DNA of 36,605 nucleotides from a virus. The stretch lies in IMG/VR virus record IMGVR_UViG_3300036046_000144, positions 1 to 36,605 of that record. One strand, written 5' to 3'. Of the stretch, positions 1 to 35,952 are shown one piece after another (the first letter of the stretch is position 1; every line of letters begins with the position of its first letter). The position numbers and the translations under genes are program-made. The notes beneath the pieces were generated by a model that ran no database searches, was not told the DNA's origin, and saw only the letters and a program-made list of their open reading frames with translations.

Positions 1-253
1 AAAAACTGGATGAAACGTTGGCATAACTATTCGTAATGACTGCCATCATGATTAAACCAGGCACAATAAATTGCATGTAGCTAAAGCCGCCCATTTCACC
101 AATACGAGAGCCAACTAAATTACCAAAAATCACAAAGTACAAGCTCATAGTGATGGCAGGTGGTAACAAAGTTTGTGGCCAAATTCGCATAAAACGACGA
201 ATTTCTTTAACAACCAACGTCCAAAGTGCAGTTTTTAATTGACTGAAATTCAT
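1..253 (-). CDS. ABC-2 type transport permease, N-terminal part
   Basis: The reading frame runs leftward from an ATG at 251-253 and is cut by the window edge, so only about 84 residues are seen. The start reads MNFSQLKTALWTLVVKEIRR, followed by the conserved segment RIWPQTLLPPAIT and a first hydrophobic stretch (SLYFVIFGNLVG), as in YadH-type ABC-2 permeases. It would form the membrane channel of the exporter whose ATPase is encoded just upstream. The ATPase stop and this start share ATGA, so the two are translationally coupled. The substrate is unknown. This is chromosomal flank, not phage. Confidence 0.85.
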   Translation of the reverse strand, partial: MNFSQLKTALWTLVVKEIRRFMRIWPQTLLPPAITMSLYFVIFGNLVGSRIGEMGGFSYMQFIVPGLIMMAVITNSYANVSSSF

Positions 254-1185
254 TGATTCGCTCCTGCAAGATTCTTCTCGACCATTTTCACGAACAATTC
301 TTCCAAACGATTGGATTTATTACGCATACTGCTGACTTGGATATTTTGCGATTGTAGCAATAAGAACAGGTCATTCATGCTATGTGCTTTGTCCATGGTG
401 ATTTCTAAAGTCACTGGATCAATTAGATTAAACGTGAACCCAAGAATATCGAGTTGCAGTGTTTCAATCGGTTCAGCCAGATCACAAATGAAAGACTCTT
501 CATTGAGTTGATTGAGGAAACCTTTCATGGTGGTATCTTCTTTAATCACACCACGATCAATAATCGCGATACGACGGCACAGCATTTCTGCTTCTTCTAA
601 ATAGTGAGTCGTTAGAATAATAGACGTACCGTTTTCATTCATTTCGGTGAGAAAATCCCACATTGAACGACGTAACTCAATGTCTACACCCGCAGTTGGC
701 TCATCCAATATAAGCAACTTAGGTTCATGCATCATGGCACGTGCAATCATTAGGCGGCGTTTCATACCACCTGAAAGCATACGTGATTGAATATTACGTT
801 TTTCCCATAAACCGAGTTTTTCTAAATAGAACTCAGCTCGTTGTTCTGCGAGTTTTTTGGGAATGCCATAATAACCTGCTTGGGTCACTAGAATATCGAA
901 GGTTTTTTCGAATTGTCCAAAGTTAAATTCTTGTGGAACAACACCAAGACATTGTTTTGCGTGGGATGGATGGGTATCTAAGTTATGCCCAAAAATTTCC
1001 ACTGTACCCGATGTTTTTTTGGTTAAGGAGCTAATGATACTGATCGTTGTCGATTTACCTGCACCATTAGGGCCTAATAATGCGTAAAATTCACCTTCAG
1101 GTACGGTTAAATCAATACCTTTTAACGCCTGAAAACCATTACGATAAGTTTTGGACAAATCGCTCAACACCAAAGCATCAGTCAT
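250..1185 (-). CDS. ABC transporter ATP-binding protein (YadG-like)
   Basis: A 311-residue ATPase of an ABC-2 exporter. The sequence shows Walker A GPNGAGKST at residues 38-46, the Q-loop region VVPQEF near 82-87, signature LSGGM at 137-141, Walker B LLILDEP at 157-163 and the switch histidine H194 in LTTHY. The remaining C-terminal third is a divergent domain, as in YadG-type proteins. It hydrolyses ATP to drive the permease encoded by the overlapping downstream gene (4-bp overlap). The exported substrate cannot be told from sequence. The pair is ordinary chromosomal content and marks the host side of the phage junction. Confidence 0.93.
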   Translation of the reverse strand: MTDALVLSDLSKTYRNGFQALKGIDLTVPEGEFYALLGPNGAGKSTTISIISSLTKKTSGTVEIFGHNLDTHPSHAKQCLGVVPQEFNFGQFEKTFDILVTQAGYYGIPKKLAEQRAEFYLEKLGLWEKRNIQSRMLSGGMKRRLMIARAMMHEPKLLILDEPTAGVDIELRRSMWDFLTEMNENGTSIILTTHYLEEAEMLCRRIAIIDRGVIKEDTTMKGFLNQLNEESFICDLAEPIETLQLDILGFTFNLIDPVTLEITMDKAHSMNDLFLLLQSQNIQVSSMRNKSNRLEELFVKMVEKNLAGANQ

Positions 1186-8749: not shown

Positions 8750-9499
8750 TTATGGTTTAACCAGTGCAGACTCTAATCGACCAACAAAATGCAATTCATT
8801 TAATTGTTCTCTGGTAATCACCTCATCTGGGTATTTTTTCTTATCTGGGTTGTCACTTTGTAGGCGTACAGTTCTTTCGTCACCGTAGCTAATAAAAACT
8901 CGTTTCATACGCAATAGGCTATTGTGAAGAAAAACGTAAACATCCCCACTAATCATTGCTTCAGTATCAATTGGAGAAATATCAACAAATAAAGGACTAT
9001 CGGGAGCTACTGTAGGCCACATGCTATATTCGGCAGAGTAGATAACTCTTAAATTTTTAGGGTTTGCCTTAATCCCAAGTAATTTCAATATTTGCGGGTC
9101 AATATCCAGATAGTCTGTAATGTCTTCTAAAAAATTAGCAACACCATCTCCACAAGATGCTTTTACATCTTTATGTACAGGAATTCTTACAGTGTTTTTA
9201 TTTTCATCAGATGGGTTGAATCTTATTGGTGATATATAGACTTCATTTTTGGGTGGCGCATGGGTTGGCGATGTCATGGATTGATCTAAAAACCCTTTTG
9301 GTTTATCGAAAGCTTGTTCAATTTTTTCAGCCGTTTCATCGCCAATATTTTTCGTTGGGTTCTTTCCAATATATTGACTAAGCAAGTTGTAAGACATTTC
9401 AATTTTTTCAGCAAATTCAGATCGGCTCATACCCAAGTCTTTCATAAGCTTTCTAGTGTTACTAAGTCTTATCTCATGAATTGTTTGCAATTCAGCCAT
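8750..9499 (-). CDS. CI-type repressor (HTH plus S24 peptidase)
   Basis: A 249-residue repressor that maintains lysogeny. ATG 9499 (MAELQTIHEI) is preferred over a GTG five codons upstream. An N-terminal Xre-type helix-turn-helix (about 10-65, with MSRSEFAEKIEMSYNLLSQY) binds the operators. The C-terminal S24/LexA-like domain has the nucleophile Ser159 (EYSMWPT) and base Lys199 (LLRMKRV). A likely self-cleavage site is Cys116-Gly117 (KASCGDG). DNA damage should therefore trigger autocleavage and induction. It sits between OL and OR, divergent from cro, and its own promoter would be covered by the operator at 9535. The antirepressor at 34180 may also target it. Confidence 0.92.
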   Translation of the reverse strand: MAELQTIHEIRLSNTRKLMKDLGMSRSEFAEKIEMSYNLLSQYIGKNPTKNIGDETAEKIEQAFDKPKGFLDQSMTSPTHAPPKNEVYISPIRFNPSDENKNTVRIPVHKDVKASCGDGVANFLEDITDYLDIDPQILKLLGIKANPKNLRVIYSAEYSMWPTVAPDSPLFVDISPIDTEAMISGDVYVFLHNSLLRMKRVFISYGDERTVRLQSDNPDKKKYPDEVITREQLNELHFVGRLESALVKP

Positions 9500-9534
9500 G
9501 ATGAAATCTACCACCCTTTAATTATTGGATAATT

Positions 9535-30672: not shown

Positions 30673-32736
30673 ATGAGTAGTACAGTTATTCGGGACTTTT
30701 TAGTTGCCTTAACTTTTAAAACCGATGAAACAGGGTCTAAAAAGTCAGAAGATGCGATGAAGCGCAATGAGAAAGGCGCAAAATTATTAAGTAGTGCATT
30801 GATCGCTTTAGCTAGTACAGCGGTCATTGCTGTTGCAAAAACTGCGAATGAGCTTGAAAAACTGTATTACTCATCAAAAAGAATTGGTGCATCTGCTGAG
30901 AATATTCGAGCTTATGGTGATGCTATTTCGCAGATGGGTGGCAATGCAGAGGGCGCAATTTCATCCCTTGAGAGCGTAGCACGTAAATTACGTGAATCAC
31001 CTGGTTATGAGGGAATGCTCAAAGGATTGGGTGTAAATACCCGAGATCAAAATGGACAAATGCGTGACCGTGTTGAAGTCATGAAAGATTTATCTAAAAC
31101 GTTGCAAGGCATGGAGTATTACAAAGCTAATGCTTATGCAGGTGCTTTGGGAATTGATGAAACCACACTACAAGCTATGCGCGATGGTAAATTTACTTCT
31201 GAAATGGAGAAGTATCAGAAGTTACGCAAAGACATGGGGCTGAGTGATGATTTGGCGAAGTCAGGTCAGGAGTTCTCATACCAATGGCGTGACATGATGA
31301 TGACACTCAAAGCTTTAATGGAAGTCATTTTGATGACCGCAGGTAAAGCTTTGATTCCTGTTTTAAGACTATTAAATCAGCTTATTCAGTTTGTCATTCA
31401 CTGGTTTAGCAAATTAGATCCACAGCTCAAATCATTCTTGGCCACAGGGTTAAAGATTGCATTATTAACAGTGGTGTTCGCTGGTTTATTTACTGCTGTT
31501 GGTAATTTTGTAAAACTCTTGCCATTGCTTAAAGGTGTGTTGAATGTTTTTAGGGCGTTACGTGTTGTGTGGCTTGCTTCGCCCATTGGTATTATTCTTG
31601 CGTTGGCTGCTGCCATTGCCTTGCTTTGGGATGACTTCCAAACATGGAAGAATGGAGGGGAATCCTTAATTGATTGGAGTAAGTGGTCTAATGGTTTGGA
31701 TAGTGCTATCGAATCAATCAAAGACCTATCTGAACGGTTACGCAATTTGGCTCAAAGTTGGATTGAGTTTGGTAAAGGTTCTTATGACAAAGTGGTTGAA
31801 TGGACTTCACGCAATGTTATTGAATCAGTTGCTAAGGCAGGTACAGCGGCAAGTAAGGCTGTGATTGATACTGCAAATGGCATTAATCGTGATGTTAATG
31901 AAAAGGTACGGGCTAATGCGGGTGGTAGGTATGCGTTTAGTTTTGGCAAGGATGTTGATGGGTATATTAAAGAAGCATCCAATAAATATGGTATTCCAGA
32001 AGATGTACTAAGAGGCTTTGTTAAAATGGAGGCTGGTTGGACTGGAAAAATGTCTCCTACAGGGGCAATTGGTACAGGTCAATTTACCCAGAGTACATGG
32101 AATGGTTTGGTTGGAACCAATGAGGGTGATGAAATTGGAATGACTAAAATTAATAAAAATAATTTTAGAAAATCCAATGATCCAAGATGGGATAAAAGAA
32201 CTAATACTTTGGCTACCGGCTTGCTAGCAAAACAAAATGCAGCAATTCTCAAAAAATATGGATTGGCTGCTACAGGTGAGAATTTATATCTTGCCCATAA
32301 TATTGGTGCAGAAACTTTTGCAAGAGCATTGTCAGGAAAAGGGGCAAGCAAAAAAGGTTTGCAAGCCATGAAAGACAATGGGATGAGGCGGGGAGAAACA
32401 CCAGAACAATTTGTAAAAAGGCAAGCTAGTATCTATATGAAGCACTATAAAACTGCAAATGAAACAGTTAAAAATGATGTTGCTTCTCAAACCCCGATAA
32501 ATAAGGAAGGATTGGCAAGAATGGCTCAAAATGCGAGCATTCCTGAAAAGAATAATCATTTAGTTCCAGCCAATGCTGCTTCGAACCCTTCTAACAAAAA
32601 GGTTGAACTGCATCAAAAAACCGACATTCATATTTCAGGGGTTTCTGATCCTATCAAAGCAGCTAAAACCATTCAACAGGAACAAAATGCCGTTAATCTT
32701 CAAATGGGTAGGAATGCAAGAGGTATTTTTGATTAA
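30673..32736 (+). CDS. tape measure protein with lytic transglycosylase domain
   Basis: A 687-residue tail length protein. Residues 1-200 are helical and coiled; hydrophobic segments lie at about 225-330 (LKIALLTVVFAGLFTAVGNF, WLASPIGIILALAAAIALLW), as in tape measure proteins that cross the inner membrane. Residues about 428-590 form a lysozyme-like transglycosylase: YIKEASNKYGIPEDVLRGFV with Glu453 in KMEAGW as catalytic residue, PTGAIGTGQFTQSTWNGLVG and NLYLAHNIGAETFARAL. On injection it should open the peptidoglycan. At the usual 0.15 nm per residue the tail would be about 100 nm. Its stop is shared as TTAA with the convergent LprI gene. Confidence 0.9.
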   Translation: MSSTVIRDFLVALTFKTDETGSKKSEDAMKRNEKGAKLLSSALIALASTAVIAVAKTANELEKLYYSSKRIGASAENIRAYGDAISQMGGNAEGAISSLESVARKLRESPGYEGMLKGLGVNTRDQNGQMRDRVEVMKDLSKTLQGMEYYKANAYAGALGIDETTLQAMRDGKFTSEMEKYQKLRKDMGLSDDLAKSGQEFSYQWRDMMMTLKALMEVILMTAGKALIPVLRLLNQLIQFVIHWFSKLDPQLKSFLATGLKIALLTVVFAGLFTAVGNFVKLLPLLKGVLNVFRALRVVWLASPIGIILALAAAIALLWDDFQTWKNGGESLIDWSKWSNGLDSAIESIKDLSERLRNLAQSWIEFGKGSYDKVVEWTSRNVIESVAKAGTAASKAVIDTANGINRDVNEKVRANAGGRYAFSFGKDVDGYIKEASNKYGIPEDVLRGFVKMEAGWTGKMSPTGAIGTGQFTQSTWNGLVGTNEGDEIGMTKINKNNFRKSNDPRWDKRTNTLATGLLAKQNAAILKKYGLAATGENLYLAHNIGAETFARALSGKGASKKGLQAMKDNGMRRGETPEQFVKRQASIYMKHYKTANETVKNDVASQTPINKEGLARMAQNASIPEKNNHLVPANAASNPSNKKVELHQKTDIHISGVSDPIKAAKTIQQEQNAVNLQMGRNARGIFD

Positions 32737-33092
32737 AACGATTCAATGTCGTTCTGTAGTTGTAATGCTCTTTTGTTATTTAAATCTACGATGCAATTAG
32801 CATGGTTATTTATCTCTTGATGATAGGTACTGTATGTTTCGCAATAACTATCTCGATATTTTAACCATGCTTTTTGCGAATTTATTAATGAAGTTACGGC
32901 AAATTTATCTGATGGCATTTCTTTTTTAGTTTTAGAAAGCAACTGACTATATTTTTGGTTGACTTCTTTTAGTGACTGTTTTTGAAAGCATGTCGCCACA
33001 TCACTTGGATTTTTTGAATTTGCTTCACAATCCCCAGCAGCATAAACCCCAGCACTAAGTGTGCAGCATAAAAGCAATAGTAGTTTTTTCAT
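32733..33092 (-). CDS. LprI-family secreted protein, lysozyme-inhibitor homologue
   Basis: A 119-residue protein with a signal peptide (MKKLLLLLCCTLSAGVYA, cleavage before AGDCEA). The mature part has four cysteines (DCEAN, ATCFQKQ, SYCETY, ANCIVD) and the helical DUF1311/LprI layout with SLINSQKAWLKYRDSYCETY. LprI proteins are known as periplasmic or cell-surface inhibitors of lysozyme-type enzymes. It is on the minus strand against the tail genes, last in the Mnt-like operon, and convergent with the tape measure gene. It is most likely a lysogenic-conversion gene. Inhibition of a phage transglycosylase is my hypothesis. Confidence 0.78.
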   Translation of the reverse strand: MKKLLLLLCCTLSAGVYAAGDCEANSKNPSDVATCFQKQSLKEVNQKYSQLLSKTKKEMPSDKFAVTSLINSQKAWLKYRDSYCETYSTYHQEINNHANCIVDLNNKRALQLQNDIESF

Positions 33093-33553
33093 TATTGAGA
33101 TTCTCTAATTGTTTCAACTGTAGTTAGGTTATCAGATTTTTGGACTTTTTGTTTTTGTTCAAAATCCTTGTAGTCTTTCTCTGTTGGGATGTAATCATGG
33201 GCTGCATGTTCTGATCGCTCAGCCTCAACAGCTTCCTCAACATCTTGAATATGAGATTGATCTGCTTTTGTATTTGTGACGATCTTAGGTTGTTCCTTGT
33301 TGGACTTGCTTTTATCAATTGCTATAAAAATTGATATTCCGACAACAACAGTAATTACAAAGAGAGATAATTTTAAGATAGAGCCTAGGCAACTACCTTT
33401 TGATTTAGTCTCATCTGAGCTAAAGTTTTCTATTTCAAAATTATTTCCACAACCTTTACATGTGTATTTTGATGTGAAGAATCCTGATTTGCTTGGTGTA
33501 TAGCGAGTTTGCTTGCTATTGCAATATGGACACCTTGGTCTAGGATCGCTCAT
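33092..33553 (-). CDS. zinc-ribbon single-span membrane protein
   Basis: A 153-residue protein. A zinc ribbon (Cys8, Cys11, Cys32, Cys35 in CPYC and CKGC) is followed by one membrane segment at about 56-79 (CLGSILKLSLFVITVVVGIS) and a long acidic, probably periplasmic, tail of about 70 residues. By the charge pattern the ribbon is cytoplasmic. It starts immediately after the Mnt-like gene stop and overlaps the LprI gene by one base. The operon position equals sieA in P22, which is also a membrane protein, but no sequence similarity is evident. Confidence 0.68.
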   Translation of the reverse strand: MSDPRPRCPYCNSKQTRYTPSKSGFFTSKYTCKGCGNNFEIENFSSDETKSKGSCLGSILKLSLFVITVVVGISIFIAIDKSKSNKEQPKIVTNTKADQSHIQDVEEAVEAERSEHAAHDYIPTEKDYKDFEQKQKVQKSDNLTTVETIRESQ

Positions 33554-33799
33554 TTATTCCCCCTTGTTAACAAGTGCCTCGGCAAGAGTATGAATAGTCA
33601 TATTCATATTCTTAATTTCTTTCCTTAGTTCATCAATTTCACTTTCTTGTGATTGGGTGGTTTCAAAACTTTGTTCTAGGCGTAGGCATATTTCAGCATT
33701 CATTGAACGGTTGTGTTCTTTGGCAGACTGGGAAACTTTATCTCGCAGATCTTCAGACCATCTTAATTTGTATTGAGGGTCTCTTTGATTTTCACTCAT
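33554..33799 (-). CDS. Mnt-like ribbon-helix-helix repressor
   Basis: An 81-residue repressor. ATG 33799 (MSENQRDPQYKLRWSEDLRD) is chosen because longer frames run back through the divergent promoters. Residues 6-45 are a ribbon-helix-helix domain whose RDPQYKLRWSEDLRDKVSQS and NRSMNAEICLRLEQSF parallel P22 Mnt (RDDPHFNFRMPMEVREKLKF, GRSMNSELL). The C-terminal helix (SQESEIDELRKEIKNMNMTI) would make the tetramerising coiled coil, also as in Mnt. It should bind the repeats at 33846-33901 and repress the antirepressor promoter in the lysogen. Confidence 0.85.
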   Translation of the reverse strand: MSENQRDPQYKLRWSEDLRDKVSQSAKEHNRSMNAEICLRLEQSFETTQSQESEIDELRKEIKNMNMTIHTLAEALVNKGE

Positions 33800-33830
33800 A
33801 AAATTTATATACCGCAAAAATAGCATACTC

Positions 33831-33901
33831 ATAATAATGAACCATAGAGGTGCTTGACAATGGTCGCAGAGAGGTACATTATTTATAAACCAAAGAGGTA
33901 C
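33831..33901. promoter_or_regulatory. immI-like divergent promoters with three operators
   Basis: Rightward promoter: TTGACA (33854-33859), 17 bp, CATTAT (33877-33882). Leftward promoter: TTGTCA (33855-33860, minus), 18 bp, TATTAT (33831-33836). The two -35 boxes share TTGACAA. Three direct repeats AGAGGTRC start at 33846, 33870 and 33894, exactly 24 bp apart, one in each spacer and one downstream of the rightward -10. They are the likely operators for the two ribbon-helix-helix proteins. Confidence 0.75.
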
Positions 33902-33912
33902 TAGAGGCAAAT

Positions 33913-34101
33913 ATGGAACTTCCAACAAAACCGATAAAGAGTGGCAGTCAACGAACTAAAGTTCAGTACAACCTGCGAATTGAAACAGAATTATTGGATT
34001 GGTTAAAAAAACAAGGAGAAGTATATGAGAGACCAGTAAATTTTTTAATTAACCATGCCGTCAAACAAATGAAAGCAGAAATAGAGAGTGCGAAAGCATG
34101 A
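33913..34101 (+). CDS. Arc-like ribbon-helix-helix regulator
   Basis: A 62-residue protein starting MELPTKPIKSGSQRTKVQYN. The segment KVQYNLRIETELLDWLKKQG and the helix RPVNFLINHAVKQMKAEIE form a ribbon-helix-helix dimer fold as in P22 Arc. A strand residue pattern (Q-Y-N-L-R) resembles Arc's QFNLRW. It is the first gene of the rightward immI-like transcript, ahead of the antirepressor. As in P22 it would damp that transcript after induction. Confidence 0.78.
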   Translation: MELPTKPIKSGSQRTKVQYNLRIETELLDWLKKQGEVYERPVNFLINHAVKQMKAEIESAKA

Positions 34102-34114
34102 AATCAATAGACAA

Positions 34115-34179
34115 CAAAAAAGCCCAACACTTGCAGGCGGCGGGCTTGATTGATGTCGCTATCTACAAGGAAAGACAAC
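34115..34179 (-). ncRNA. possible sar-like antisense RNA over the antirepressor start
   Basis: On the minus strand, -35 TTTACA (34209-34214), a 17-bp spacer and -10 TAAAGT (34186-34191) would start a transcript near 34179. It would run to a hairpin AAGCCC / GGGCTT (34120-34147) followed by a T run. The RNA of about 65 nt is complementary to the antirepressor's ribosome binding site. P22 has the sar RNA (about 70 nt) at the same place. The promoter is modest and the hairpin has a long loop, so this is a hypothesis. Confidence 0.35.
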
Positions 34180-35043
34180 ATGTCTACTTTAACATTAAGT
34201 TTTAACGATGTAAATTTTTCACCAGTACAGCACGACAATCAAATTTGGTTGTCATCTAGCGAATTAGCTTCAGCATTAGGTTATTCTCGTTCAGACAAGG
34301 TTACTCAAATCTATACACGTAATTCTGATGAATTTACTGAAAAAATGACGCAAATTATTGATATTTCCGAGAACCTCAATTTGGGGGTCTCGAATTTAGT
34401 ATCAAAAGTCCGTATTTTTTCATTACGTGGCTGTCATCTTATAGCAATGCTTGCTCGTACATCTGTTGCTAAAGAATTTCGTAAGTGGGTGCTTGATATT
34501 TTGGATAAAGAGGTTGGTAAGCCAATAGTCAAGACTCATAAATCTGAACGAGAGCCTCTTACCAACGCTGTAAATTTATTGGTTGCTAAAACAAAGCATC
34601 TAAATTACAGCGACGCATATAAACTGGTTCATCAGCGATTTAATGTTCAGCATATTGATGAGATTGCATTTGATGCTATTCCTATTGCGGTTGAATATGT
34701 ACATCATCTAATTGCTTTGTATAGTAGTGCAGGTAAACAAGGTTCATTGTTTGATAAAGATATGTATGAGCTTATTCGAGAATTTACAGAATCTGTATTA
34801 AGTCAAAACTTTATGATGCAAGATGTTTGGAAAGCTCTCATGCTGATCAACAAAAGCGACATGATGTATTACTCAAAATACGTTCTTGACTCAAATAAGC
34901 TTGCACGCAAGGTTAGTATTGAATTGGATTTCAAAACAAGGAAGGGTGTGCCATTGGTAAGCCCAGATTTGAAACAAATCAATTTTCATAGTGGGACTAT
35001 TTTTGGGGTTAACCCAAAATGGTTTAATGCGCCATCTTGGTAA
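34180..35043 (+). CDS. phage antirepressor with Bro-N domain
   Basis: A 287-residue protein. ATG 34180 (MSTLTLSFNDVNFSPVQHDN) follows AAGGAAAGACAAC; an in-frame start at 34150 is less good. The Bro-N domain (about 5-105) shows IWLSSSELASALGYSRSDKV, the TQIYTRNSDEFTEKM part, and FSLRGCHLIAMLARTSVAKE plus FRKWVLDILDKE. The C-terminal domain (about 125-287) is helical and probably binds the target repressor. It is the analogue of P22 Ant, able to inactivate a CI-type repressor and so induce lysis. The next element is a terminator at 35068. Confidence 0.88.
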   Translation: MSTLTLSFNDVNFSPVQHDNQIWLSSSELASALGYSRSDKVTQIYTRNSDEFTEKMTQIIDISENLNLGVSNLVSKVRIFSLRGCHLIAMLARTSVAKEFRKWVLDILDKEVGKPIVKTHKSEREPLTNAVNLLVAKTKHLNYSDAYKLVHQRFNVQHIDEIAFDAIPIAVEYVHHLIALYSSAGKQGSLFDKDMYELIREFTESVLSQNFMMQDVWKALMLINKSDMMYYSKYVLDSNKLARKVSIELDFKTRKGVPLVSPDLKQINFHSGTIFGVNPKWFNAPSW

Positions 35044-35218: not shown

Positions 35219-35557
35219 ATGAAATCCGTCCGAGCAAGAACAATGGATAGAGCTACTTGCTTTAAAGATACGGGCAACACGTATCAAGCTTTTGTTGAGC
35301 CAAAAAAAAGAACTTTTCAATTCCGTATTATCAAAAAAGATTCAATTCGCCTTGCTTACTATTATAGTGGCAATACTGTTGTACGCTTTTGGCAAGAAGT
35401 TGCTCATCAAATTAACACTAGAACTGTTAATCAAGAAAAGTACTTTGATATAGATAACTTAGCTAGATTAGCTAAGGAAGAATCGTTTACAATGCCACGA
35501 GGTTTAACCCGCGAGCAAAGACGAGAATGGGCGAAGAGAAATCTAATCAACAAGTAG
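35219..35557 (+). CDS. hypothetical protein, first gene of a two-gene cassette
   Basis: A 112-residue basic protein starting MKSVRARTMDRATCFKDTGN. The first half looks beta-rich (TYQAFVEPKKRTFQFRIIKK, IRLAYYYSGNTVVRFWQEVA) and the end is helical and basic (RGLTREQRREWAKRNL). The upstream palindrome and own promoter-like sequence suggest expression independent of the tail operon. It overlaps the next gene by 31 bp. It could be the antitoxin of a toxin-antitoxin pair, but I do not recognise the family. Confidence 0.6.
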   Translation: MKSVRARTMDRATCFKDTGNTYQAFVEPKKRTFQFRIIKKDSIRLAYYYSGNTVVRFWQEVAHQINTRTVNQEKYFDIDNLARLAKEESFTMPRGLTREQRREWAKRNLINK

Positions 35558-35952
35558 AACAATACAGTATTGCTTTTGGCTTAACCTTTAATAAATATTA
35601 TGCAGAATCATATTCAGAAAATACACTGGATTTGATTGATGATTTTATTGACCATTATGAAGCTAATGGATTTAAGGACTGGATAGGAAAAGTTGCCCAA
35701 TCCAATAGAGTTCCTGAGAATTATGAAAATAGAGATGATTTAATCAAGAAAGCAAATAAATACAATCTTTGGCATGTTCATATTGGTGATCCACGTTGGG
35801 AAACTCCCGCACATGGGAAATTCAAAACATCTGAATGGGTGCTACATCTCAGAAGAGTGGGTAAGAAAATTGTTTTACTAGAACTGGGTTGGCACAACCC
35901 TATGTATCTACCAAAAGATAAAATTCTCAAAGAAGATTTCATTGATGTTTAA
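35527..35952 (+). CDS. hypothetical protein, possible RelE/YafO-type toxin
   Basis: A 141-residue protein starting MGEEKSNQQVEQYSIAFGLT, after GACGAGA. The core has helix TLDLIDDFIDHYEANGFKDW, then NLWHVHIGDPRWETPAHGKF, a strand SEWVLHLRRVGKKIVLLELG and the end WHNPMYLPKD. The order helices, a VHIG strand and LLELG strand recalls RelE-fold toxins that act on mRNA or ribosomes (such as YafO). Catalytic residues cannot be assigned. The start inside the upstream gene fits a coupled pair. The call is tentative. Confidence 0.5.
   Translation: MGEEKSNQQVEQYSIAFGLTFNKYYAESYSENTLDLIDDFIDHYEANGFKDWIGKVAQSNRVPENYENRDDLIKKANKYNLWHVHIGDPRWETPAHGKFKTSEWVLHLRRVGKKIVLLELGWHNPMYLPKDKILKEDFIDV

What the first reader, a model, noticed from the sequence alone, without database searches (positions are those of the whole stretch)
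32733..33092. Prophage lysozyme inhibitor (LprI family) convergent with the tape measure transglycosylase: a possible superinfection block
Seen: a signal peptide plus LprI-like mature domain, on the lysogenic strand, sharing the TTAA stop with a tape measure gene that carries a transglycosylase domain (Glu453). Known: LprI proteins inhibit lysozymes; P22 carries sieA behind mnt. Inference: in lysogens the periplasmic inhibitor could block the muralytic step of incoming related phages. I know of no described exclusion system of this type.
Basis: partly seen in the sequence, partly recalled or inferred. Interest (0 to 1): 0.75.

Follow-up and report, generated by a model that had tools for sequence, protein, structure and literature searches.

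The report
Phage tail-enzyme and matching periplasmic inhibitor
A temperate Acinetobacter phage carries, next to the gene for its cell-wall-cutting tail protein, a gene for a small secreted protein that probably blocks that same enzyme; related phages swap enzyme and partner together, which suggests phages shut rivals out of their host the way bacteria protect themselves from each other's injected toxins.

Summary
Window 32733-33092(-) encodes a secreted PF07007 (LprI) protein on the repressor's strand, sharing a TTAA stop overlap with a tape measure protein (TMP) whose C-terminal domain models as a lytic transglycosylase (Glu453 conserved).

In 71 distinct loci with a homologous TMP backbone, the TMP C-terminus is swapped among nine or more types, mostly known or likely muralytic, and 64 of 66 TMP stops adjoin a small signal-peptide gene. 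That gene's family tracks the C-terminal type (permutation p=5e-5), not the backbone or the next structural gene. Transglycosylase A pairs with LprI-A, Hydrolase_2 with LprI-B, a VgrG3-like muramidase with LprI-C, tail lysozyme with an unrelated family. Some prophages carry extra, non-cognate inhibitors.

The LprI model matches DUF1311 and, more weakly, TsiV3, the immunity protein of VgrG3 muramidase. Best reading: a cognate periplasmic inhibitor of the tail muralytic domain, giving superinfection exclusion and protection from tail damage.

Nothing was tested biochemically; tight linkage is the main caveat.

The parts
32733..33092 (-). LprI-A: 119-aa secreted three-helix protein (PF07007, phrog_4895), candidate inhibitor of the TMP transglycosylase domain
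30673..32736 (+). Tape measure protein, 687 aa, with swappable C-terminal muralytic domain
31930..32442 (+). Type A lytic transglycosylase domain (TMP residues 420-590); catalytic candidate Glu453 at 32029-32031
32733..32736 (.). TTAA: overlapping convergent stop codons of TMP and LprI-A; same -3 offset in most relatives
33092..33553 (-). 153-aa protein: N-terminal zinc ribbon, one likely transmembrane segment, conserved tail (AAH-YIPTE-DYK); its stop overlaps the LprI start
33554..33802 (-). Arc-like ribbon-helix-helix protein (likely start MSENQRD), first gene of the minus-strand set
33913..34101 (+). Divergent Arc-like repressor, 62 aa
34150..35043 (+). Bro-N antirepressor (P22 Ant-like position)
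8750..9514 (-). Prophage repressor (HTH_3 plus Peptidase_S24), same strand as LprI-A

Best explanation
The LprI-A protein is the cognate periplasmic inhibitor ('immunity protein') of the lytic transglycosylase domain at the C-terminus of this phage's own tape measure protein. Shown here: a secreted LprI-fold protein on the repressor's strand, convergent with a transglycosylase-bearing TMP, and co-swapping of muralytic type with secreted partner across related prophages. Inferred: it is made in the lysogen from the Arc-ZnR-LprI gene set, exported by Sec, and binds the basic transglycosylase domain when an incoming virion delivers the TMP into the periplasm, so that peptidoglycan is not opened. 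The effect would be to reduce DNA entry of phages carrying the same muralytic type, including heteroimmune recombinants that the repressor does not stop, and to spare lysogens from wall damage by virions of induced siblings.
For: (1) In 71 distinct loci, collapsed to 40 backbone/hydrolase/inhibitor combinations, hydrolase type and adjacent secreted family share 2.46 bits against a shuffled mean of 1.63 (maximum of 20,000 shuffles 2.09, p 5e-5). Hydrolase type does not track the next structural gene (z about 0.1) or the backbone (z 0.4), but does track the inhibitor (z 7.7). (2) The N-terminal tree needs at least 36 changes of hydrolase type; in 8 independent pairs differing in type A, LprI-A goes the same way in about 7 and never the opposite way (p 0.016). 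(3) Type A with LprI-A in 23 of 25 distinct loci; Hydrolase_2 with LprI-B; VgrG3-like with LprI-C; Phage_lysozyme2 with CV1. (4) Type E domain is PF21277 (2.6e-28) and matches crystallised VgrG3 (E 1.6e-11), whose partner TsiV3 aligns to the LprI-A model at 2.4-2.7 A, Z 8.5-9.2. (5) 64 of 66 TMP stops adjoin a signal-peptide gene against 12.7% background by the same crude rule. (6) Tandem non-cognate inhibitors in L071, L087, L093, L080 and an orphan LprI-A/LprI-B array in an unrelated prophage (L254). (7) Hydrolase domains carry +4 to +18 charge, LprI-A -3 to +1. (8) DUF1311/LprI is listed among domains implicated in T6SS immunity (PMC12135965).
Against: The inhibitor is the nearest neighbour of the swapped domain, so joint recombination of one DNA tract could give part of the association. 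Pairing is imperfect: L158/L175 (type D) carries LprI-B, L095 (B2) carries CV2, CV3 occurs with A, B1, D and F, and L127 (A) has nothing. Virulent phages with the same type A domain have no adjacent LprI. TsiV3 similarity is by fold only; a three-helix bundle at Z 9 may be a common arrangement. ScwA shows that an LprI domain need not inhibit lysozyme. Homoimmune phages would be stopped by the repressor anyway. No binding, inhibition or plating data exist.
Confidence: 0.66

Rival explanations
1. Hitch-hiking: the TMP 3' end is a recombination hot spot that accepts secreted morons of mixed function, and hydrolase and neighbour travel together only because one crossover tract covers both.
For: Pairing is imperfect and several families occupy the site; some are co-directional with the late genes.
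Against: The next structural gene, often only about 0.35-1 kb further on, shows no association with hydrolase type. LprI subfamilies track hydrolase types in distant backbones (66% against 1.8% same family). Within type A, hydrolase and LprI distances correlate after removing backbone distance (partial Mantel r 0.29, p 0.0045).
Confidence: 0.17
2. Lysogenic conversion against foreign muramidases: the prophage protects its bacterium from T6SS muramidases of competitors or from animal lysozyme, unrelated to phage entry.
For: LprI-family proteins occur as T6SS immunity candidates; M. tuberculosis LprI is reported as a lysozyme inhibitor (cited).
Against: The family follows the muralytic domain of the phage's own TMP. 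LprI-A is rare outside these prophages: of 5 hits in 347 Moraxellaceae genomes, 3 lie beside a type A TMP, one is an orphan prophage copy and one is a weak match. ScwA did not affect lysozyme sensitivity.
Confidence: 0.08
3. Self-protection: the inhibitor mainly guards the lysogen or infected cell from lysis from without by virions released nearby, rather than excluding DNA entry. It is a variant of the best explanation with the same target.
For: T4 spackle was found through loss of resistance to lysis from without. Type H partners are co-directional with late genes.
Against: In the window and most relatives the gene is on the repressor's strand, which suits the lysogen rather than the late phase.
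Confidence: 0.25
4. The protein tunes a host peptidoglycan enzyme or the phage's own endolysin, as ScwA affects host murein enzymes.
For: ScwA controls the levels of a murein lytic enzyme (PMC7933661).
Against: This would not explain why its family changes with the TMP domain. Endolysin type was not examined.
Confidence: 0.06

Closest known systems
T4 Spackle (gp61.3; PF25676) inhibiting gp5 tail lysozyme
   Same: Small periplasmic alpha-helical, disulfide-bearing phage protein acting on the muralytic domain that a tail brings into the periplasm; superinfection exclusion (PMC7677548). LprI-D of L082 matches PF25676 weakly (E 0.009, below cut-off).
   Different: T4 is virulent and has one inhibitor of a hub-spike lysozyme, made early in infection. 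Here the target would be a TMP domain, the gene lies on the prophage repressor strand, and inhibitor and hydrolase are swapped together among many unrelated families.
VgrG3-TsiV3 T6SS muramidase effector-immunity pair (4noo, 4nso)
   Same: LprI-A model aligns to TsiV3 (Z 8.5-9.2, 2.4-2.7 A). Type E TMP domain is a VgrG3-like muramidase by sequence and pairs with an LprI protein. Polymorphism, adjacency and orphan immunity genes are alike.
   Different: No T6SS; the hydrolase is on a phage tape measure; no sequence-level match to TsiV3 was detected.
DUF1311/LprI proteins next to T6SS lysozyme-like effectors (Pantoea, Salmonella SPI-19 LysM/LysMI)
   Same: Same Pfam family, signal peptide, next to a peptidoglycan hydrolase gene (PMC8867033; PMC12135965).
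   Different: Bacterial secretion loci, not phage tails; the Salmonella pair is a prediction.
P22 SieA and immI region (mnt, arc, ant)
   Same: Minus-strand genes led by an Arc/Mnt-like gene, divergent Arc-like gene and antirepressor; P22 sieA also lies beside the gene of an ejection protein that is its target.
   Different: [quoted passage not shown] escape maps to gp16 and gp20.
HK97 gp15 and TP-J34 Ltp
   Same: Prophage-encoded envelope proteins whose target is, or depends on, the incoming phage's tape measure protein.
   Different: Not known to act on a muralytic domain; unrelated proteins.

Membership tests
PF07007 LprI / DUF1311 | Profile match above the curated cut-off | tested here: met
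   41.8 bits against cut-off 22, residues 37-112; fold match to DUF1311 3gi7 Z 12.6
PF07007 LprI / DUF1311 | Signal peptide and conserved cysteines | tested here: met
   Signal-like N-terminus by eye and by a crude script; four mature cysteines conserved in all LprI-A relatives. No dedicated signal-peptide predictor was available
Lysozyme-inhibitor lipoproteins (M. tuberculosis LprI, MliC/PliC) | MliC domain | tested here: not met
   No MliC/PF09864 match among Pfam hits
Lysozyme-inhibitor lipoproteins (M. tuberculosis LprI, MliC/PliC) | Inhibits lysozyme | not testable with these tools
   Needs purified protein
T4 Spackle family | PF25676 profile | tested here: not met
   No match for the window protein; LprI-D of L082 weak, 17.0 bits against cut-off 27
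T4 Spackle-type exclusion (as a mechanism) | Inhibits the muralytic domain of the phage's own tail | not testable with these tools
   Only co-swapping of the genes shown
TsiV3 T6SS immunity family | Fold and sequence relationship | tested here: inconclusive
   Fold Z 8.5-9.2, under the 13 advised for helical bundles; no sequence match
Effector-immunity-like pairing | Inhibitor family tracks hydrolase type independently of backbone and of the next gene | tested here: met
Lytic transglycosylase (TMP residues 420-590) | LT fold with invariant catalytic Glu | tested here: met
   Z 12.1 to phiKZ gp144 and 11.6 to phi6 P5; Glu453 invariant; model of low confidence at residues 39-45 of the domain
P22-like immI module | Arc/Mnt-like pair plus antirepressor | tested here: met
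   Arc 7e-13 and Bro-N 5.4e-11; phrog_3180 Arc-like 4.4e-10. Present in the window; not annotated at the LprI-A locus of Ab105-1phi

The most novel reading that the evidence does not exclude
Acinetobacter temperate phages carry a polymorphic tail-hydrolase/periplasmic-immunity system: nine or more muralytic TMP types, with dedicated secreted inhibitors from several unrelated families, plus orphan inhibitor arrays. It sets who can superinfect whom, as T6SS effector-immunity repertoires set who can kill whom.
Probability: 0.5. Interest if true: 0.85.

Novelty: new variant of a known kind. Interest (0 to 1): 0.72.

Why it matters
If true, one can predict from sequence which prophages exclude which incoming phages by matching muralytic type to inhibitor type, in a genus where phage therapy is actively pursued. 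It would also give functions to several families of small secreted phage proteins with no known role, and link phage tail evolution to T6SS effector-immunity evolution through a shared muramidase type and a possibly shared inhibitor fold. It makes testable why temperate phages keep swapping the muralytic end of the tape measure: escape from resident inhibitors.

Tried and rejected
Sequence search of the LprI proteins against the PDB found DUF1311-like entries (3gi7, 6ar7) but no TsiV3 or Spackle. Promoter and terminator scans of 32600-34300 gave counts at the shuffled expectation (6 against 5.4; 1 against 0.8), so the divergent -10/-35 pair near 33831-33882 is not evidence. Pfam gave no accepted family for CV1 to CV5, IC1 or IC2. 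The first clustering of C-termini and of convergent proteins merged unlike sequences because of shared linkers and signal peptides; it was replaced by hand-seeded HMMs. Some 'no inhibitor' loci of that first pass in fact carry a co-directional secreted gene, or CV1 at offset -34. In one search the 'H vs IC' test counted an unlabelled type H locus as matching, so its p value is not used. Carobbi et al. 2022, on a T6SS lysozyme-like effector with a DUF1311 partner, was not held. Literature searches found no report of LprI paired with a tape measure. No tool could predict the complex of the two proteins.

Full report
What is there. The window is an IMG/VR virus record of 36,605 bases from an Acinetobacter-type temperate phage; its nearest relatives by tape measure are Ab105-1phi, AbTJ and BUCTT20. 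ORF 32733-33092(-) encodes 119 residues: a signal-like N-terminus and a PF07007 LprI domain (41.8 bits, cut-off 22), and it belongs to phrog_4895, function unknown. Its stop overlaps that of the tape measure gene 30673-32736(+) in the sequence TTAA. The gene is the last of a tightly packed minus-strand set: an Arc-like ribbon-helix-helix gene, a zinc-ribbon/transmembrane protein with a conserved tail, and LprI. Facing them are another Arc-like gene and a Bro-N antirepressor, an arrangement like P22 immI. The prophage repressor (S24 type) is on the same strand as LprI.

The enzyme. TMP residues 420-590 form a basic domain with invariant Glu453. Pfam is silent or weak on it, but the AlphaFold2 model (pLDDT 81) aligns best to phage lytic transglycosylases, phiKZ gp144 (Z 12.1, 156 residues) and phi6 P5 (Z 11.6), then Slt and MltE.

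The inhibitor candidate. The model of LprI-A (pLDDT 85) is a three-helix protein. The best PDB match is DUF1311 protein 3gi7 (Z 12.6); then, besides the LprI-like 6ar7, come three entries of TsiV3, the immunity protein of the V. cholerae VgrG3 muramidase (Z 8.5-9.2, 2.4-2.7 A). Helical bundles give such scores by chance more often than other folds, so this is supportive, not decisive.

The survey. TMPs with an N-terminus homologous to the window's were collected from IMG/VR and from genomes: 164 rows, 75 distinct, 71 used. Their C-termini fall into at least nine types, known or likely to be muralytic: A, transglycosylase; B1 and B2, PF07486 Hydrolase_2; C, PF18013 tail lysozyme; E, PF21277 VgrG3-like; D, F, G and H, without a Pfam family. 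Directly at the TMP stop, in 64 of 66 loci with enough flank, lies a small gene with a signal-like N-terminus, against 12.7% of other gene-like ORFs by the same crude rule. It is convergent in most and co-directional in type H and a few others.

Co-swapping. Type A goes with LprI-A in 23 of 25 distinct loci; B with LprI-B in 8 of 15, otherwise with various other small proteins; C with CV1 in 4 of 5; D mostly with CV2; E with LprI-C in 2 of 2; F with LprI-D or with a disrupted or truncated CV3. Mutual information between hydrolase type and partner family is 2.46 bits against 1.63 on shuffling (p 5e-5). The next structural gene and the backbone show no such association. With distant backbones (under 75% identity), 66% of same-hydrolase pairs share the partner family against 1.8% of different-hydrolase pairs; with close backbones (75% or more) and different hydrolases it is 3.3%. 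On the backbone tree the hydrolase type changed at least 36 times, and in independent pairs LprI-A follows type A about 7 of 8 times, never the reverse. Within type A the two distance matrices correlate beyond the backbone (r 0.29, p 0.0045). So the partner follows the enzyme. Linkage of neighbours may contribute, but a gene often only about 0.35-1 kb further on shows no trace of it.

Orphans. L071, L087 and L093 have LprI-A at the TMP stop and LprI-B behind it; L080 has LprI-C and further on a CV2. A genome without a detected type A domain has LprI-A and LprI-B close together in a prophage beside portal and head-morphogenesis genes (L254). Prophages L192 to L195 carry LprI-B upstream of an unrelated TMP. 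Inhibitors kept without their enzyme are what one expects if they act on other phages. Acinetobacter chromosomal LprI genes score only 13-20 bits against these phage models (120-180 for phage copies), so the phage proteins are not recent host copies.

Mechanism. Shown: gene structure, fold classes, co-swapping, strand. Inferred: expression in the lysogen, periplasmic location, binding and inhibition, exclusion. The precedents are T4 Spackle, a periplasmic helical inhibitor of the gp5 tail lysozyme (PMC7677548); the VgrG3cp muramidase with its neutralising partner TsiV3cp (PMC9927483); and exclusion proteins acting through the tape measure, Ltp and HK97 gp15 (PMC3952083, PMC10883804). Because homoimmune phages are already blocked by the repressor, the likely use is against heteroimmune recombinants sharing the tail enzyme and against wall damage by sibling virions. 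The family name alone is not proof: ScwA, an LprI-domain protein, did not affect lysozyme sensitivity (PMC7933661).

Verdict. The polymorphic co-swapped repertoire with orphans in temperate phages was not found in the literature searched here, which covers open-licence papers only.

Noticed in passing
L080 and L094 TMP C-termini: A VgrG3-like T6SS muramidase domain (PF21277, 2.6e-28 in L094) sits at the end of a phage tape measure and pairs with an LprI protein.
   Followed up: partly
L254:6957-8139: LprI-A, another small possibly secreted gene and LprI-B form an array in a prophage whose genome has no detected type A TMP domain, beside portal and head-morphogenesis genes.
   Followed up: partly
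L130, convergent to the TMP: A CV3 gene appears split by a 402-aa transposase-like ORF, leaving 64- and 71-aa fragments near the TMP stop.
   Followed up: no
window 33092-33553: Zinc-ribbon/transmembrane partner of LprI; relatives swap the zinc-ribbon part but keep the C-terminal tail (AAH-YIP, TTIR). Role unknown; it occurs with several hydrolase types.
   Followed up: partly
L055, TMP stop +9, and relatives: Secreted family IC1 (GGGAGG-Y motif) follows type H TMPs on the late strand and also occurs next to LprI-B in L186 and L192 to L195; no Pfam family.
   Followed up: partly
L235:3108-6469 and L236:3393-6220: More distant TMPs with a type A domain are followed by a secreted gene overlapping the TMP stop, not LprI.
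   Followed up: partly
window 250-1185(-): ABC-type ATPase with AAA_21 similarity at the left end; moron or flanking host gene.
   Followed up: no
window 35219-35952(+): Two small ORFs of unknown function (phrog_18801, phrog_5954) lie between the antirepressor and the next structural gene.
   Followed up: no
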